From Sipunculus nudus (Eukaryota > Annelida > Sipuncula > Golfingiida > Sipunculidae), in contig CM049316.1 of the NCBI GenBank assembly GCA_026874595.1, positions 63,593,176 through 63,657,175 on the forward strand: a stretch of 64,000 bases of DNA, given 5' to 3'. Below, in pieces: positions 22,120 to 41,870 of this stretch. The notes under the pieces are model-generated. The model was not told where the DNA came from, ran no database searches, and saw only the letters and a list, made by a program, of their open reading frames with translations. Position 1 is the stretch's first letter. Every line of letters begins with the position of its first letter. Both the position numbers and the translations under genes were made by a program.

Positions 22120-24400
22120 TTAGTTCACTCTGTGAACTTATGCCATGGTGCAGCATCCACTGTCCACCGTCTGTTACCAAATATCTCAACAGCCACAGCA
22201 GCTACTTTCATGAAACTTTGCAGAATTACTGATCATGGGATGGACATGCAAAAATAAGTTTTTGGTGGCGCCACCTATGTTGACCTACTTTCTGCAGGAC
22301 GAAATGATCTTTTCCACTTCTTCCAAGATTAGTCATTAAGTATTAATATTTTGGCTTTCATATCATAGTCAACAGTCCCTTAAAGGAAGGGGAATAATTT
22401 GTGTGTAAATTCAGTCAAGTCATTTTCAAGATGGCGTCTCTAGGGAACTTCAAATTGTGTCAATCGCAAAATTTTGCAACTTGATGTGTTTCCATACATG
22501 ATGTATTGTCTGTTGCCAAATATTTTAGGAACTGCTGCAGCCTTCAGTTTCAAATTTCACAGGTATATTGATCATTTGACTGCTAAATGATTTTGACCTC
22601 CAGGTGGCGCCACCTGTCTTGACCTACTTTTTAGCCCTTAGGCTGATGGGCTATTGTCGTCACCCAAGCTGTCCGTCCGTCCGGCGTCCGTTAACTTTTC
22701 CCTTGTGAGTGGGATATCTGGAAAAGGATTCATCGTCAGAATTTTATTTCCTCGGTAAAGATGTTTATCGACAAAATCTCGGTCAAGTTCGAAGATGGGT
22801 GACCTTGACCTATTTTTCTACATTTTAGAGCTGATTATAGAAAAACACTTAGATGCTTATTACTCAGGAACCATTTGGTGGATTTTCACAAAACTTACTA
22901 TGATTATTGGGACTGATAGTCTGTACCTGCTATACAAGTTTGGTGGCGCCACCTACAATTTCTGATTTTTAATGAATTTTTATCGGATTTTTCAACTTTG
23001 GGCTTGTGAGCGGGATATCTCGAAAAGGATTCACCGTAAGAATTTTATTTTTTTCGGTGAAGATGTATATTGACAAAATCTCGGTCAAGTTCGAAGATGG
23101 GTGACCTTGACCTATTTTTCTACTTTTTAGAGCCGATTATAGAAAAAACATTTAGAAGCTTATTTCTCAGGAACCATTGGATGGATTTTCACAAAACTTA
23201 CTATGATCATAGGGACTGATAGTCTGTAACTGCTGCACAAGTTTGGGGGCGCCACATGCAATTTCTGATTTTTTTATTGAATTTTTCTTGGATTTTTCAA
23301 CTTTGGCCTTGTGAGCGGGATATCTCTAAAAGGATTCACAATAGGAATTTTATTTCTTTGGTGAAGATGTGTATCGACAAAAAACTTGTTCATGTTCGAA
23401 GATGGGTGACCTTGACCTACTTTTCAAGGTCAAAGAGCTTATAATAGAATAAAACTTAGAAGCTTATTTTTCAGGAATCATTTGGTGGATTGTTATGAAT
23501 CATGGTACATACCTCTCCATTTTAAATTTATAACTGAGACATGTACAGATATACATCCATGTGAGAACAGATATTTAGTACTTGTTACTGTTACCACCTC
23601 TAAACACTGTTCTTTTGGCTGAGGGCTTTTGTCAGCTTTTGCTGATATTCTAGTTGTGGGATGAAATGGTCTTTTCCACTTCTTCTGAGATAAGTCATAA
23701 AGTAATAACATTTTGGCCTTCATATCATAGTCAACAATTCCATAGAGGAAGGGGAATAATTTGACTATATATTCAGTCAAGTCATTTTCAAGATGGCATT
23801 TCTACGGAACTTCAAATTATGTCGATTGCAAAATTTGACAACTTGATGCGTTTCCATACATGATGTATTGTCTGTTACCAAATATCTTAGGAACTGCTAC
23901 AGCCTTCAGTTTCAAATTTCACAGGAATATTGATCATGTGACTGCTAAATAATTTTGACCTCCAGGTGGCGCCACCAGTGTTGACCTACTTTTTGCGGGA
24001 TGAATGGTCTTTTCCACTTCTTCCAAGATAATTCATAAAGTAATAATATTTTGGCCTTCATATCATAGTCAGCAGTTCCTTAGAGGAAGGGGAATAATTT
24101 GAGTATAAATTCAATCAAGTAATTTTCAAGATGGCATCTCTACAGAACTTCAAATTGTGTCTATCGCAAAATTTGACAAATTGATGTGTTTCTATACACG
24201 ATTTATTTTCTGTTACAAAAGTATCTTAGGAACTGCTGCAGCCTTCAGTTTCAAATTTTACAGGAATATTGATCATTTGACTGCTAAATGATTTTGACCT
24301 GCAGGTGGCGCCACCTGTGTTGACCTACTTTTTACAGGCTGTAAAGGTCTTTTCTGCTTTTTCCAAGATATATCTATACTTTCCAAGATAAGTATTTATT
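22120..24400 (+). repeat. 339-bp tandem array in a HINE-like element
   Basis: The element begins with a T run and TTAGTTCAC TCT GTGAACT (hairpin), then CATGGTGCAGCATCC and GTCCACCGTCTG. The core is a 339-bp unit. Its palindrome GGTGGCGCCACC starts at 22264 and 22603 (339 apart) and again at 23965 and 24304 (339 apart). Each is followed by TTGACCTACTTT, and the last three are preceded by TTTTGACCT. The array is split by the insertion at 22631-23653. It lies between the convergent 3' ends of the two genes. The 3' end of the element is not defined. Confidence 0.75.
22631..23653 (+). mobile_element. Helentron-like (HINE) insertion, 1023 bp
   Basis: It starts TTAGCCC, with a hairpin-prone AGCCC...GGGCT arm and a GTCCGTCCGTCCGGCGTCCG tract. 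It has three internal subrepeats with AAGTTCGAAGATGGGTGACC, and ends TCAGC TTTT GCTGA TATT CTAG. Removing 22631-23653 joins CTACTTT to TTGTGGGATGAAATGG, which matches the uninterrupted sister repeat CTACTTTTTGCGGGATGAAT at 23988. The spacing of the flanking 339-bp landmarks (1362 = 339 + 1023) agrees to the base. Insertion between two T residues without duplication, with a hairpin and CTAG end, is how Helentrons insert. There is no Rep/helicase frame, so it is non-autonomous. The opposite-strand copy is at 36186-36804. Confidence 0.8.
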
Positions 24401-25385: not shown

Positions 25386-35060
<9,675 letters not shown>

Positions 35061-35806: not shown

Positions 35807-37594
35807 CTAGATGTGTCGGAACGACACAAATGCCCCCGAGTGGAGCAAATTATAAATATTTGTTTATTTTTTTTTTTAAGTTCAGGAGGTGTCTTATGGT
35901 CAAAAGAAGGTCAACAAGGGCAAAATGCAAACTCGATCTGTAACAGGTCATTATCAAGCAACACACCAAAAAGTCAGGCCAGTATCTGCAGGCATTGTGA
36001 AAAAAGTCCATACATGTGCATTTTTCATGAAAATTTCTGTCTTTCATGAAATTTTCTATGTTCAGGATCTGTCATATGGTCAAAAATAGGTCAACTGGGA
36101 CAAAAGTGAACTCAATCTGTAAGTGGTCATTATGTGCCCACAGACCAAACATTAGGCCAGTATCTGTAAGCACTGCATTGCGAAACTAGAATATTAACAA
36201 AAGCTGATAATCAGTTATAAATTTAAATTGGAGGGGTATGTACCATGTTTCATGACAATCCACCAAATGCTTCCTGAGAAATAAGCTCCTAAGTTTTTTT
36301 CTATACTAAGCTCTGTTACCTTGAAAAGTAGGTCAAGATCACCCATCTTTGAACTTGACCAAGAATTTGTAAATATCATGCAATAGCACTGAAGAAATGA
36401 AGTTCCTGTGTTGAATACCTTTGGAGATATCCTGCACAAAAGGCCAAAATTGAAAAATCTGATAAAAATTCATTAAAAAATCAGAAATTGCACGTACAGA
36501 CCATCATTCCAAATGTCCATAGTAAGTTTTGTGAAAATCAACAAAATGGTTCCTGAGATATAAACTTCTGAGTGTTTTTGTATAATCAGCTCTAAAACAT
36601 AGAAAAATAGGTAAAGGTCACCCATCTTCGCACTTGACCAAGATTTTGTTGATATATATCTTCACTGATGAAATAAAATTCCAACAATGAATCCTTTTAG
36701 AGATATCCTGCTCACAAGGTAAAAGTTAACAGACACGGGACGGACGCCAGACGGACGGACAGCTTGGGTGACAATAGCCCAACAGCCGATGGGCTTAGGG
36801 CTAAAAAAGGCTGAACATGTACATTTGCAATGAAAATTTCTTTTTTTTCATGAAATTTTCTATGTTTAAGGAGCCGTAAAACAACCGGGATAAAATGCGA
36901 ACTCGATCTGTAACTGGTCATTATCTGCCCACACATAAAAAATCAGGGCGGTATCTGCAGGCATTGTGGTAAAAAGTACATATGCATTTGTTATGAAAAT
37001 TTCTATTTTTCATAAACTTTCTATGTTCAGGGCACCATCAAACGGTCAAAAGTAGGTCAACTGAAACAAAACTGGAAATCAATCTGTAACTGGTCATTAT
37101 CTGCCCACACACCAATAATCAAGCCCATACCTGCAGGCAATGCGAAAAAAAAGTCAGTACATGTGCACTTGTCATGAAAATTTATATTTTTCATGAATTT
37201 TCTATGTCAGGGCACCGTCAAACGGTCAAAAGTAGGTCAACTGGGATAAAACACAAATTTGATCTGTAAATGGTCATTATCTGCCATCACACCAAAAATC
37301 AGGCCAATATCTGCAGGCATTGTGAAAAAAAGTCCTTACATGTGTATTTGTCATGAAAATTTCTATTTTTCATGATATTTTCTATGTTCAGGAGCCGTAA
37401 AACAGTCAAAAGTAGGTCAACCGGGATGAAATGTGAACTCGATCTGTAAGTGGTCATTATCTGCCCACAAATAAAAAATCAGGCCAAGATCTGCAGGCAT
37501 TGCAAAAAAAAAAAAAATTTGTACAACTGTTTGATTCCGGAATGACGGTCATGGGTAAAACTATATGCCCGACCACTTTGTGGCGGGGGCATAA
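35807..37594 (-). mobile_element. HINE-like element with about 178-bp tandem core
   Basis: Read on the minus strand it starts TTATGCCCCCGCCAC, with a hairpin closing in GTGGTCGGGCATATAG. It ends with GTGTCG TTC CGACAC AT CTAG at 35807. The core is five or six diverged units of about 175-180 bp, each with GTAGGTCAAC-type words, TGGTCATTATCTGCCC and TCTGCAGGCATTGTG (at about 36950, 37130, 37307 and 37487). The array is split by the insertion at 36186-36804. Confidence 0.7.
36186..36804 (-). mobile_element. Nested Helentron-like (HINE) insertion, 619 bp
   Basis: A shorter, reversed copy of the 22631-23653 family. On the minus strand it starts TTAGCCCTAAGCCCATCGGC and has CACCCAAGCTGTCCGTCCGT. 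It contains the same AAGATGGGTGACCTT.ACCTA subrepeats and ends TCAGCTTTTGTTAATATT CTAG. Removing it joins GCATTGCGAAA to AAAAGGCTGAACATG, which matches sister units (for example GCAATGCGAAAAAAAAGTCA), so it also went in between two T residues of the minus strand without duplication. Confidence 0.8.
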
Positions 37595-37874: not shown

Positions 37875-39310
37875 CTAGACGACCATAGGTCGAACGCTTG
37901 CCGGAAATCGGAAGTGAAACACAGATGGACAGAACATATTGTCGGTTTTCTATTAATGGAATGACTCTCAGGTATATTGCTGAGATTATGTGGCCCGTAG
38001 AATGACATATGAGACAAAAGAACAGGCAAGCAGAGAAAGCTGACTACAAAAGACGAACGGACAGACATACTGACTTTGTGAGACAAGATTGACACCAGAT
38101 GACTTAACCTAGTTATGGAGAAGATTCAAAGGAAGAAAATGAGTTATAATTTATGTAATTTAGATTTATAGTTTTGGAGGTATGGCGAATTAATGATATA
38201 CTTGGGAGGTTCGACTGTAGCGCCCTCTAGCGGACATATTCCGAAGACGACAAATGCATTTCGTATTATTAGTGTATGACATGAGATGTCCCAGTTTCAA
38301 AAGGATTCCGTCAAAGCTATGGCCTATAGAATGCTATATGTAAGGCGTAAGAACCAGCAAGCAGGCGACTTTGAGGGTAACGGACAAACAGATGGACACA
38401 CTGACAAAGTGATAGAAGATTGAAACCAGATGCCTTAATCAAGTTATGGAGAAGACTCAAAGGAAAAGAATAAGCTATAGTTTATGTAACTGAGGTTTTT
38501 GGTGTAGAGATATGGCCAATACAATGGTATGTGTGTGAGGGTCGTGTGCAGCGCCCACTAGTGGCCATATCCAGAAAATGAAAAATTTATTTCTAGATAT
38601 TAATGTATGACATAAGATGTAATAGTTTCAAAAGGATTCCTTCAAAACTGTGGCCTATAGAATGCTATATGTGAGACGCAAAAACCAGCAAGCAGGCGAA
38701 TTTGAGGACAACTGACAAACAGACGGACACACTGACAAAGTGACTCAAGATTGAGTCCAGATGACTACTCCAGGTTATGGAGAAGACTCAAAGGAAGAAA
38801 AAAGCTACAGTTTATGTAACTGAGGTTTATAGTTTTGGAGATATTGCCAAAGCATGATATGTTGGGAGAGGTTCAAGTTCAGCGCCCCCTAGCGGCCATA
38901 TCCGGAAAATGAAAAATTGGTTTCGAGATATTAGTGTAAGACTGAAGATTTAATGGTTTCAAAAGGATTCTTTCAAAACTGTGGCCTGTAGAATGCTATA
39001 TGTGAGACGCAAGAGCAAGCAGGCGAATTATAGGACAACTGACAAACAGACAGACACACTGACAAAGCATCACAAAATTGTGACCAGATGACTACACTGG
39101 TTTATGGAGAAAACTCAGAGGAAGAAAATAAGCTTTAGTTTATGTAATTGAGGCTTATAATTTCGGAGGTATGGCCAAAATATGATATGTTCGGGAGGTT
39201 CGCATCCAGCGCCCCCTAGCGGCCCTATTCAAAAATTGAAAAAAGATTTCGAGATACTAGTGTAGGACTTATAATATGTCAGTTTCAAAAAGATACCTGC
39301 AATAATGTGG
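37875..39310 (-). repeat. 330-bp tandem array, CTAG-ended element
   Basis: The lower end is CTAG (37875-37878) next to the hairpin CGACC ATA GGTCG, i.e. the 3' end of a minus-strand HINE-like element. The core has four units with landmarks AGCGCCC(C/T)CTAGCGG at about 38218, 38549, 38880 and 39208, a period of 328-331 bp. Each unit also has GGAGAAGACTCAAAGGAAGA, ATGCTATATGTGAGACGC and an ACAAACAGAC(G)GACACACTGA tract. The same family recurs at 52201-52760 and 55496-56215. Confidence 0.75.
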
Positions 39311-39659
39311 CCTTTGGCGCAAGATGAATGAAATCTCGAAATATCTCTATTCACGAGATATTTTACGAGATACTGCAAGACTTGTAATAAAATCTTGTTG
39401 TACTAGTTGAATGCTACCTGATGCAAAAAACTAGATCACTCTAGCTTTAAAACTGACAAAGTTAGAAAAATAAGACCCATTATTTTCGAATATCATGACT
39501 TTTCCCCTAAAATTTGTAACCATAGTTACGGCAAATTTGAGTCAGCTACACACCAGATGACAGGCCTTGGAATGACAATTAAAATAAGCTATTGTTGAAG
39601 TAGATACGACTAATAGTCACAAAGATATGAAGAAAAACCGTTTTGAGAAGTTTTGACGA

Positions 39660-39835
39660 CCTTGACCTTGACGTTTGACCTATTTTAACCAAAAACAATA
39701 GGGCACCTAGAAATTATGTTTTCATCATCCCTGTAAGTTTCAAGGTGATTGTGGCAAAATGCCAGGAGAGTGCAGACAAACAAACAAACAGACAGACAGA
39801 CAATCAGACAGACAAACAGACATACGCAACTGACC
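39660..39835. repeat. TGACCT half-sites and GACAGACAAACA microsatellite
   Basis: GACCTTGACCTTGACG (about 39659) followed by CAATAGGGC and AAGTTTCAAGGTGATTGTGG, then a (GACA/AACA)n tract at about 39774-39825 and GACCAATATGCTTGCCGAAA. The same block, in the same order, closes every copy of the 1269-bp unit below. Confidence 0.6.
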
Positions 39836-39889
39836 AATATGCTTGCCGAAATCTTTGATTCCGGCAAGCAACAAACTAGCTGCAAAAGT

Positions 39890-40570
39890 CGCCGTGTTAT
39901 CAGCATTTACGTGAAATCATGTTTTTTTCTCGCTTGACGAGATATAGTACGAGATTTGGCAAGACGAGCAGTTTTATTATGTCAAGACGGCCAAACGTTA
40001 CGAAATGGCGAAAACTAGATCCGTCTAGCTGTAAAAGTCGCCGAGTTATAAGCATTTCCGTGTACTCTCGTGTTTTCTCGTTTGACGAGATATGGTGCAG
40101 GATTTGGCCAGTCTTGCAGGTTTGTCATGTCAAGCCGTCCAAATGTTAATGAATGCCAAAAACTAGACCTGTCTAGCCGTGAAAGTCGCCGACTTATATG
40201 CATTTCTGTGAAATCTCTTTTTTCCACATTTGACCAGATGTAGTGCGAGATTTTGCCAAGTATCGCAGTTTTACTATGTCAAGTTGGCCAAATGTTACCA
40301 AATGCCAAAAACTAGACCTGAGTAGCTGTAAAAGTCGCCTAGTTATAAGCATTTCCATGATATCTCGTTTTTTTCTCGCTTGACGAGATATGGTGCGAGA
40401 TTTGGCCTGATTTCTTTTCTGGCGTGTCAAGCTGGTCATATGTTATGAAATGCCGGAAACTAGACCTGTGTAGCTGTAAAAGTCGCCGAGTTATAAGCAT
40501 TTCTGTGAAATCTCGTTTTTTCTCGTTTGACGATAAACCGAGCAAAATTTGACAAGACTTGCAATTGAAT
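39890..40570. repeat. 149-bp tandem array, about 4.5 copies
   Basis: The word GTTATAAGCATTTCCGTG and close variants recur at about 40045, 40191, 40342 and 40491. Each unit contains TCTCGTTTGACGAGATATGG, GCGAGATTTGGC, ATGTCAAGC, and AAACTAGACCTGTCTAGCTG. TCTCGT TTG ACGAGA is a small hairpin. No unit has a conserved reading frame. Diverged versions of this monomer make up much of the 1269-bp units. Confidence 0.8.
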
Positions 40571-41870
40571 GACTTAGAACCAAGGGGAAGCAGCCTCATG
40601 CAAAAGACTAGACCCTTGAAACATAAATATTAACCGAGATAGAAGCCAAAAACTGCATATTTTCAGATCGTCAAGTTTAACCCACAAATTTGGTAACCAT
40701 GGTAACGGCAGCACAAAGCTACATGTGCGGAGGAATAAGCCAATGTTCCTAGTTTAAGATACAACGATAAAAATTGTGCCATGTTTAAAATTATTTTAGA
40801 TATTGCAGAAAAATGATATGTTACAGTGTTTCAGGTACCACGCCCCCTGGTGGCTATTTCCAAAAAATAAAAAACTGATTTCGAGATATTTATAAATAAC
40901 ACAAAATATATCAAATTCAAAGCCATTGTTAAAAAAATGCAACCTGTAGGTCATATTTAATGAAATCTCGAAGACTCTCGTTTGACGAGAAATGGTGCGA
41001 GATTTGGCGAGACTTTCAGTTTTATCATGTCAAACTGCCTATAAGGTACATAATGACCAAAACCAGACGTCTGTAGCTTAAAAATTGAAAAAGTTACAAA
41101 AAATGGTCGTGTTATTTCCAATTTCCATGATTTTTGCCCAAAAAATGTTACCATGGTAACGGCACTTGCATATCTGTCGTGTCAAGCTGGTCTAGTGGAA
41201 CTAAATGCCGTAAACCAGACGTGTCTAGCTGTAAAACTGACCCAGTTATAAGCATTTCCGTGAAATCCCGTGTTTTCTCGTTTGACGAGATACGGTGCGA
41301 GATTTGGCCTGTCTTGCAGCTCTGTCGTGTCAAGCTTGTTTGGTGGAACGAAATGCCGAAAACCAGACCTGTCTAGCTGTAAAAGTCGCCGAGTTATAAG
41401 CATTTCCGCGAAGTCTCGTTTTTTCTCGTTTGACGAGATATGGCGCGAGATTTGGCGTAACTTTCAGTTCTGTCGTGTCAAGCTGGTCATGAGGAACAAA
41501 ATGCCGAAAACTAGATCTGCCTAGCTTAAAAACTGACAAAGTTACAAAAAAATGGTCGTGTTATTTCCAATTCCCATGAATTTTGCCCAAAAAATGTAAC
41601 CATGGTAACGGCAAATTTGAGTAAGCTACATATCAAAAGAAAGGCCAGGTGATGACGAAAAAAATGAGCTATTGCAGAAGTGGATAAGCCTATTTATGGC
41701 GAAGTTATAGTGCAAAAACCGTTAACCACACCTGTCGTGACCTTGACCCTTGACCTTGGAGCAATGTTGACCAAAAACAATAGAGTTCCAGGGTCTTCGG
41801 TTGTCAATCAACCCTGTAAGGGTCATGTCGATTGCTGCAAAATTGTGGCCAGGAGAGCGCAGACAAACAC
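40571..41870. repeat. Diverged copy of the 1269-bp unit with extra 149-bp monomers
   Basis: It contains, in the same order as the 1269-bp unit, GAGATAGAAGC, GGTAACCATGGTAACGGCAG, TTGCAGAAAAATGATATGTT, the CTCF-like CACGCCCCCTGGTGGCTA (40839-40856), CTCGTTTGACGAGAAATGGT and GAGATTTGGC. Two further 149-bp monomers are added at about 41170-41480. It ends with a TGACCTTGACCCTTGACCTT block at about 41740. Confidence 0.65.

What the first reader, a model, noticed from the sequence alone, without database searches (positions are those of the whole stretch)
22631..23653. Helentron-like insertion with exactly reconstructable empty site
Seen: removing this block restores a 339-bp tandem unit to the base (CTACTTT + TTGTGGG versus sister CTACTTTTTGCGGG; flank spacing 339 + 1023). 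The ends are TTAGCCC and hairpin-TATT-CTAG, with T on both sides and no duplication. Known: Helentrons and their HINE derivatives insert between two T residues and end in a hairpin plus CTAG. Inference: this is a non-autonomous, recently mobile Helentron family.
Basis: partly seen in the sequence, partly recalled or inferred. Interest (0 to 1): 0.8.

Follow-up and report, generated by a model that had tools for sequence, protein, structure and literature searches.

The report
Helentron-type mobile DNA inside tandem repeats
A 1,023-base non-coding mobile DNA of the known Helentron-dependent (HINE) kind jumped exactly between T bases of a tandem repeat; thousands of relatives share its ends in the same genome, but this copy has lost part of its left end.

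Summary
In detail: removing 22631-23653 restores a 339-bp tandem unit with the T5 run that neighbouring units show. The block is one copy of a large family: 2,634 3' ends and 3,496 full-type 5' ends in G000, reversed-pattern controls 0. At 11 insertions, 38 of 55 paralogous empty sites show that exactly two T were added; one site (L017) argues against a TT duplication. The element is therefore TT-AGCCC...TATTCTAG, target TTT|TT. Its architecture is that of HINEs, known from oysters (Cg_HINE). Two corrections: the window copy lacks 7 bp of the family 5' end, which removes its 5' subTIR and weakens the terminal hairpin; and such short ends recur (64 matches), scattered on a weakly supported tree, so this copy is probably a dead end. 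The genome holds Rep-helicase-endonuclease ORFs. One such Helentron family shares an 11-bp subTIR with a second candidate HINE in the window; no partner with the finding's own ends was seen at 27 Rep loci sampled, nine of them not read to their 3' end. New member of a known kind. Unexplained side result: its repeat holds GGTGGCGCCACC, present 111,729 times in this genome (reversed control 14).

The parts
22631..23653 (+). The HINE copy: TTAGCCC ... TATTCTAG, 1,023 bp, no ORF over 73 codons stop to stop
   Evidence: empty site, family ends and ORF scan
22628..22630 (+). target T residues on the left (TTT|)
   Evidence: host T5 run shared out as 3 + 2
23654..23655 (+). target T residues on the right (|TT)
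   Evidence: right flanks of the other copies begin T in 37 of 37 and TT in 36 of 37
22633..22652 (+). 5' hairpin, contracted: AGCCCTTAGGCTGATGGGCT; the family has AGCCCTC in front of it, which here is missing, and with it the 11-bp 5' subTIR AGCCCTCAGCC
   Evidence: 38 of 39 other copies fetched carry the extra 7 bp; folds at -4.6 instead of -12 kcal/mol as single-stranded DNA
22671..22682 (+). GTCC microsatellite
22693..23491 (+). central tandem repeats, period 305, 2.6 copies
   Evidence: Tandem Repeats Finder
23617..23627 (+). 3' subTIR GGCTGAGGGCT, perfect inverse of the family 5' AGCCCTCAGCC
23632..23645 (+). 3' hairpin TCAGCTTTTGCTGA, followed by TATTCTAG
   Evidence: fold -4.3 kcal/mol, z -3.1
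22264..24370 (+). host array of 338/339-bp units interrupted by the element
36186..36804 (-). second, older relative (80% identical to the family consensus), inserted in a 180-bp tandem array, also T-flanked
31488..34629 (-). candidate HINE of another family (B): 5' TTAGCTCAGCTGAC..., 3' ...TCAGCTGAGC-hairpin-CTTG|TT; read as one element by inference from the two ends

Best explanation
It is a HINE: a non-coding derivative of an endonuclease-encoding rolling-circle transposon (Helentron). Shown: family-wide ends TT-AGCCCTCAGCC...GGCTGAGGGCT-hairpin-TATTCTAG; insertion between T residues of a T run without duplication; thousands of dispersed ends; no ORF; Rep-PIF1-endonuclease ORFs in the same genome. 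Inferred from the Helentron literature: a trans-acting Rep protein nicks at the TT next to the 5' hairpin, one strand is displaced, replication ends at the 3' hairpin and CTAG, and the strand is joined into a T-rich target. Also shown: the window copy has a 7-bp contraction between the AGCCCT direct repeats of the 5' hairpin, and such short ends occur in 64 places. Inferred: the contraction arises again and again by slippage and leaves the copy immobile.
For: Empty sites at 11 insertions: +2 T in 38 of 55, majority in 7 of 11 insertions. L017: empty GAAGCTTTTC in 6 of 8 paralogues, filled GAAGCTTTTT[element]TC, which does not fit a TT duplication. 2,634 3' ends and 3,496 full 5' ends, controls 0. 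Perfect 11-bp subTIR pair, 5' inverted repeat, GTCC microsatellite, central repeats and 3' hairpin as in published HINEs. 143 Helitron_like_N matches; Rep + PIF1 + endonuclease over the Pfam cut-offs in L048 and L055. Short 5' ends are scattered on a tree (13 changes, shuffled mean 11.7).
Against: No autonomous element with these very ends among 27 Rep loci sampled, nine of which were not read to their 3' end. 17 of 55 empty sites do not give +2, mostly where the T run varies between paralogues. Only one site (L017) speaks directly against a TT duplication. The tree of short ends is weak (1 of 33 branches starred, bootstrap not settled, two long branches). Transposition itself was not observed.
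Confidence: 0.93

Rival explanations
1. A MITE of a cut-and-paste DDE transposon: element AGCCC...CTAG with a 2-bp TT target duplication.
For: +2 T at the window's own T5 site fits both readings; right flanks are TT in 36 of 37 copies.
Against: L017 has TTTTT on the left and T then C on the right at a TTTTC target, which a TT duplication would not give; ends are not terminal inverted repeats but subterminal ones plus a 3' hairpin. No search for a transposase with these ends was made.
Confidence: 0.04
2. The 5'-short form, to which the window copy belongs, is one mobile subfamily that moves without the 5' subTIR, rather than a recurrent lesion.
For: 37 places carry exactly the same short end; two short-only pairs in the tree.
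Against: Short copies do not cluster: 13 changes against a shuffled mean of 11.7, one clade rejected (p 3e-10); by path the window copy's nearest row is a full-type copy, 98% identical. The tree is weakly supported.
Confidence: 0.15
3. A canonical Helitron-derived element.
For: CTAG fits the recalled 3' consensus CTRR; rolling-circle anatomy with a 3' hairpin.
Against: Starts TTAGC, not TC; target TTT|TT, not A|T (both Helitron rules recalled); Rep ORFs read in this genome are of Helentron type (RGSPH, endonuclease).
Confidence: 0.03

Closest known systems
Cg_HINE elements of Crassostrea gigas (PMC7492417; Results read in full, other passages seen)
   Same: subTIRs of 11-12 bp, 5' inverted repeat, short GTCC-like microsatellite, central tandem repeats, 3' palindrome, TT target, no duplication, insertion also into repetitive DNA
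   Different: own end sequences; central repeats 305 bp instead of mostly 140-180 bp; no sequence comparison with the oyster elements could be made here
HINE-Mo of Metaseiulus and DINE-1 of Drosophila (PMC4067079; first third of Results, one section and passages read)
   Same: TT target, no target modification, subTIRs near the 5' end, palindrome near the 3' end
   Different: 3' subTIR ends 26 nt from the 3' terminus (38-60 in the mite elements)
Pearl elements of bivalves (known here only from passages of PMC7492417)
   Same: short arrays of central repeats between conserved ends; re-classified as non-autonomous Helentrons
   Different: central repeats about 160 bp; sequences not compared

Membership tests
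HINE / Helentron | insertion between T residues without target duplication | tested here: met
   38 of 55 empty sites at 11 insertions give +2 T; L017 against a duplication
HINE / Helentron | subTIRs (about 11-15 bp) near both ends | tested here: met
   family: AGCCCTCAGCC / GGCTGAGGGCT; in the window copy itself the 5' one is lost
HINE / Helentron | palindrome close to the 3' terminus | tested here: met
   TCAGCTTTTGCTGA 8 nt from the end; fold z -3.1
HINE / Helentron | no coding capacity (HINE) | tested here: met
   longest stop-to-stop frame 73 codons
HINE / Helentron | autonomous Rep-helicase-endonuclease partner sharing the ends | tested here: inconclusive
   machinery present, but 0 of 27 sampled Rep loci have these ends, nine not read to the end
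canonical Helitron | 5' TC and A|T target (recalled) | tested here: not met
   5' TTAGC, T|T target
MITE of a DDE transposon | target-site duplication | tested here: not met
   L017 lacks a TT duplication; single informative site

The most novel reading that the evidence does not exclude
HINE-type elements of this genome act as dispersers of one protein-binding palindrome: GGTGGCGCCACC occurs 111,729 times (reversed control 14), sits in the 305-bp units of this element and in further repeat contexts whose flanks mostly agree only near chance level, and may be a conserved binding site, for example of an architectural protein, spread by rolling-circle parasites.
Probability: 0.12. Interest if true: 0.65.

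Novelty: new member of a known kind. Interest (0 to 1): 0.34.

Why it matters
It gives a base-exact definition of ends and target for a very abundant HINE family, with many independent empty sites, and a natural series of 5'-contracted copies that could test whether the 5' subTIR is needed for mobility. It also ties one candidate HINE (family B of this window) by an 11-bp subTIR and the 3' end type to Helentron ORFs of the same genome; the oyster study could not relate its HINEs to autonomous elements (PMC7492417, passage seen).

Tried and rejected
Partner search for the finding's own ends: (1) eight 10-kb loci around long Rep ORFs, no such ends; (2) a pattern that excludes the HINE's usual upstream bases gave 14 hits; three were fetched (L076-L078), all show HINE sequence next to the end and none a Helentron protein match; (3) the same idea at the 5' end gave one hit, 1,044 bp from a listed 3' end, so most likely a HINE copy; (4) 3' regions of 19 further Rep loci, none with these ends. 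An early idea that the number of added T follows the target (2, 3 and 5 at the first three sites; note) was dropped when more empty sites gave +2; the third of these, L027, has a diverged paralogue (84%) and is left out of the count, as are L026 and L043, which are paralogues of each other. Selection on GGTGGCGCCACC inside this family: not seen (non-consensus fraction 0.024 and 0.031 at its two sites, 0.027 for the whole element). Paper searches for the palindrome gave one unrelated paper in the listing and, with 'CTCF binding' and AGGTGGCGCC, none.

Full report
Observation. The element occupies 22631-23653 in an array of 338/339-bp units. The anchors GGTGGCGCCACC of the units lie at 22264, 22603, 23965, 24304 (the one at 22942 is inside the element); the interrupted gap is 1362 = 339 + 1023. 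The joined unit is 90% and 89% identical to its neighbours; the two following units show the same T5 run, the preceding one TTTCT.

The family. A genome search gave 44 matches from 40 scored candidates of 2,924, most covering query bases 3-1023. I fetched the 39 places other than the window with about 100 bases or more on each side. In 38 of 39 the 5' end carries 7 bp more than the window copy, typically TTTTT-AGCCCTCAGCCCTTAGGCTGATGGGCT with point differences in some; L047 lacks them too and its 3' end was not found. L045 (an internally repeated copy) was left out of the alignment, L047 out of the consensus, which rests on 38 rows including the window. Those rows are 0.7-4.3% from the consensus, the window copy 2.4%; L047 is 8.1%. 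Patterns in G000: 2,634 3' ends with up to 3 mismatches, 3,496 full 5' ends with up to 3, 64 short 5' ends with T5 and up to 1 (37 exact, the window included); the reversed controls are 0. The stringencies differ, so the ratio of short to full is rough.

Ends and target. Right flanks begin T in 37 of 37 and TT in 36 of 37 copies; L038 was dropped there because the script misplaced its end (in one search it reads CTAG-TTT). A T5 run directly precedes the A in 35 of 38 copies; L020, L021 and L040 differ by one base. For 11 insertions, the window's included, joined flanks were aligned with 55 empty paralogues: +2 in 38, +3 in 9, +1 in 4, 0 in 2, +4 in 1, +5 in 1. +2 is the majority in 7 insertions (window, L015, L017, L020, L023, L025, L035). 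In L037 (99-100% identical) and L031 (93-96%) the T run differs between paralogues; L011 (81-95%) and L021 (85-88%) spread widely. In L017 six of eight empty sites read GAAGCTTTTC and the filled site reads GAAGCTTTTT[element]TC; a TT duplication would leave TT on the right. I conclude that the element is TT-AGCC...CTAG and the target TTT|TT.

Anatomy. Family 5' end: AGCCCTCAGCC + CTTA + GGCTGATGGGCT, -12 kcal/mol as single-stranded DNA (z -5.8); the window's short form -4.6 (z -2.1). Then a GTCC microsatellite, 2.6 units of 305 bp, 3' subTIR GGCTGAGGGCT, hairpin TCAGCTTTTGCTGA, TATTCTAG. The longest stop-to-stop frame is 73 codons. This is the plan of HINEs (PMC4067079: part 1 of 3 of Results and one section read; PMC7492417: Results read in full).

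The 7-bp contraction. AGCCCTCAGCCCTT to AGCCCTT is a deletion between direct repeats AGCCCT. The element's TT is kept (+2 at the window site), so it is internal and not a new start. Twenty of the 36 other exact short copies were compared with 15 full copies taken from the chromosome-1 list. On a tree of about 340 bp of body the short label needs 13 changes against a shuffled mean of 11.7, and one clade is rejected (p 3e-10); support is weak (1 of 33 branches starred, bootstrap not settled, long branches L156 and L142), and starred branches alone force only 2 changes. I infer recurrent slippage in the hairpin and loss of mobility.

Machinery. Helitron_like_N (PF14214) has 143 matches. L048 (2,235 aa) has OTU, Rep, PIF1 and endonuclease domains over the cut-offs; L055 (2,388 aa, cut at the fetched start) has Rep, PIF1 and Exo_endo_phos_2 over the cut-offs; in L054 (2,342 aa) the endonuclease match is below the cut-off; L053 (1,658 aa) shows none. 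All four read RGSPH, with the S that PMC4067079 gives as Helentron-type. Five copies of one family (L054, L084, L086, L099, L105) end in TGTCAGCTGAGC-ATYA-TGACCCATKGGTCA-CTTG|TT, 1,021-1,023 bp after the ORF. The window carries a candidate HINE (31488-34629, minus) with 5' AGCTCAGCTGAC, 11 bp of which equal the inverted 3' subTIR of L054, and a 3' end 93% identical to L053 over 41 bp; the published rule asks for 11 bp of identical subTIR. A 5' end of this kind was not found in 1.6 kb upstream of L054 and L055. For the finding's own family, 0 of 27 Rep loci had its ends; in nine (L048-L052, L081-L083, L087) long repeats or unread sequence follow the ORF and the 3' end was not reached, although two were read 6-7 kb further.

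Palindrome. GGTGGCGCCACC: 111,729 sites, reversed pattern 14. Among the first 100 listed sites, gaps of 128-131, 147-150 and 335-337 recur (14, 17 and 7 of 52 gaps under 700). Flanks of four contexts (338-bp unit, this element, L043 flank, L085) are 31-39% identical, except 51% between the 338-bp unit and L085. In this family it is no better conserved than the rest. It stays unexplained.

Judgement. It is a new member of a known kind.

Noticed in passing
window 22264, 22603, 22942, 23965, 24304; L085; flanks of L043: The 12-bp palindrome GGTGGCGCCACC recurs in several repeat types with mostly unlike flanks; 111,729 sites in the genome against 14 for the reversed pattern.
   Followed up: partly
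window 36186-36804 (minus) and 35900-37511: A second, older relative of the element (80%) sits in a 180-bp tandem array; the copies L011 and L144 are inserted at what looks like the same T run of that unit elsewhere in the genome.
   Followed up: partly
window 31488-34629 (minus): Candidate HINE of another family whose subTIR and 3' end type are those of Helentrons L053/L054.
   Followed up: partly
L144, 5' end: One copy reads TTTTTAGCCCTCAGC followed by TTTTTAGCCCTTAGG, as if the 5' end had been begun twice.
   Followed up: no
window 38052-41544; L079, L080: The 331- and 148-bp tandem arrays of the window resemble in period and consensus start arrays found downstream of two Helentron ORFs.
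   Followed up: no
L048-L055, ORF starts: The N-terminal parts of the Helentron ORFs hold in-frame 63- or 69-bp tandem repeats.
   Followed up: no
L101, L102: Two Rep loci have a 3' end of the TCAGCTGAGC type that ends in CTAG instead of CTTG.
   Followed up: no
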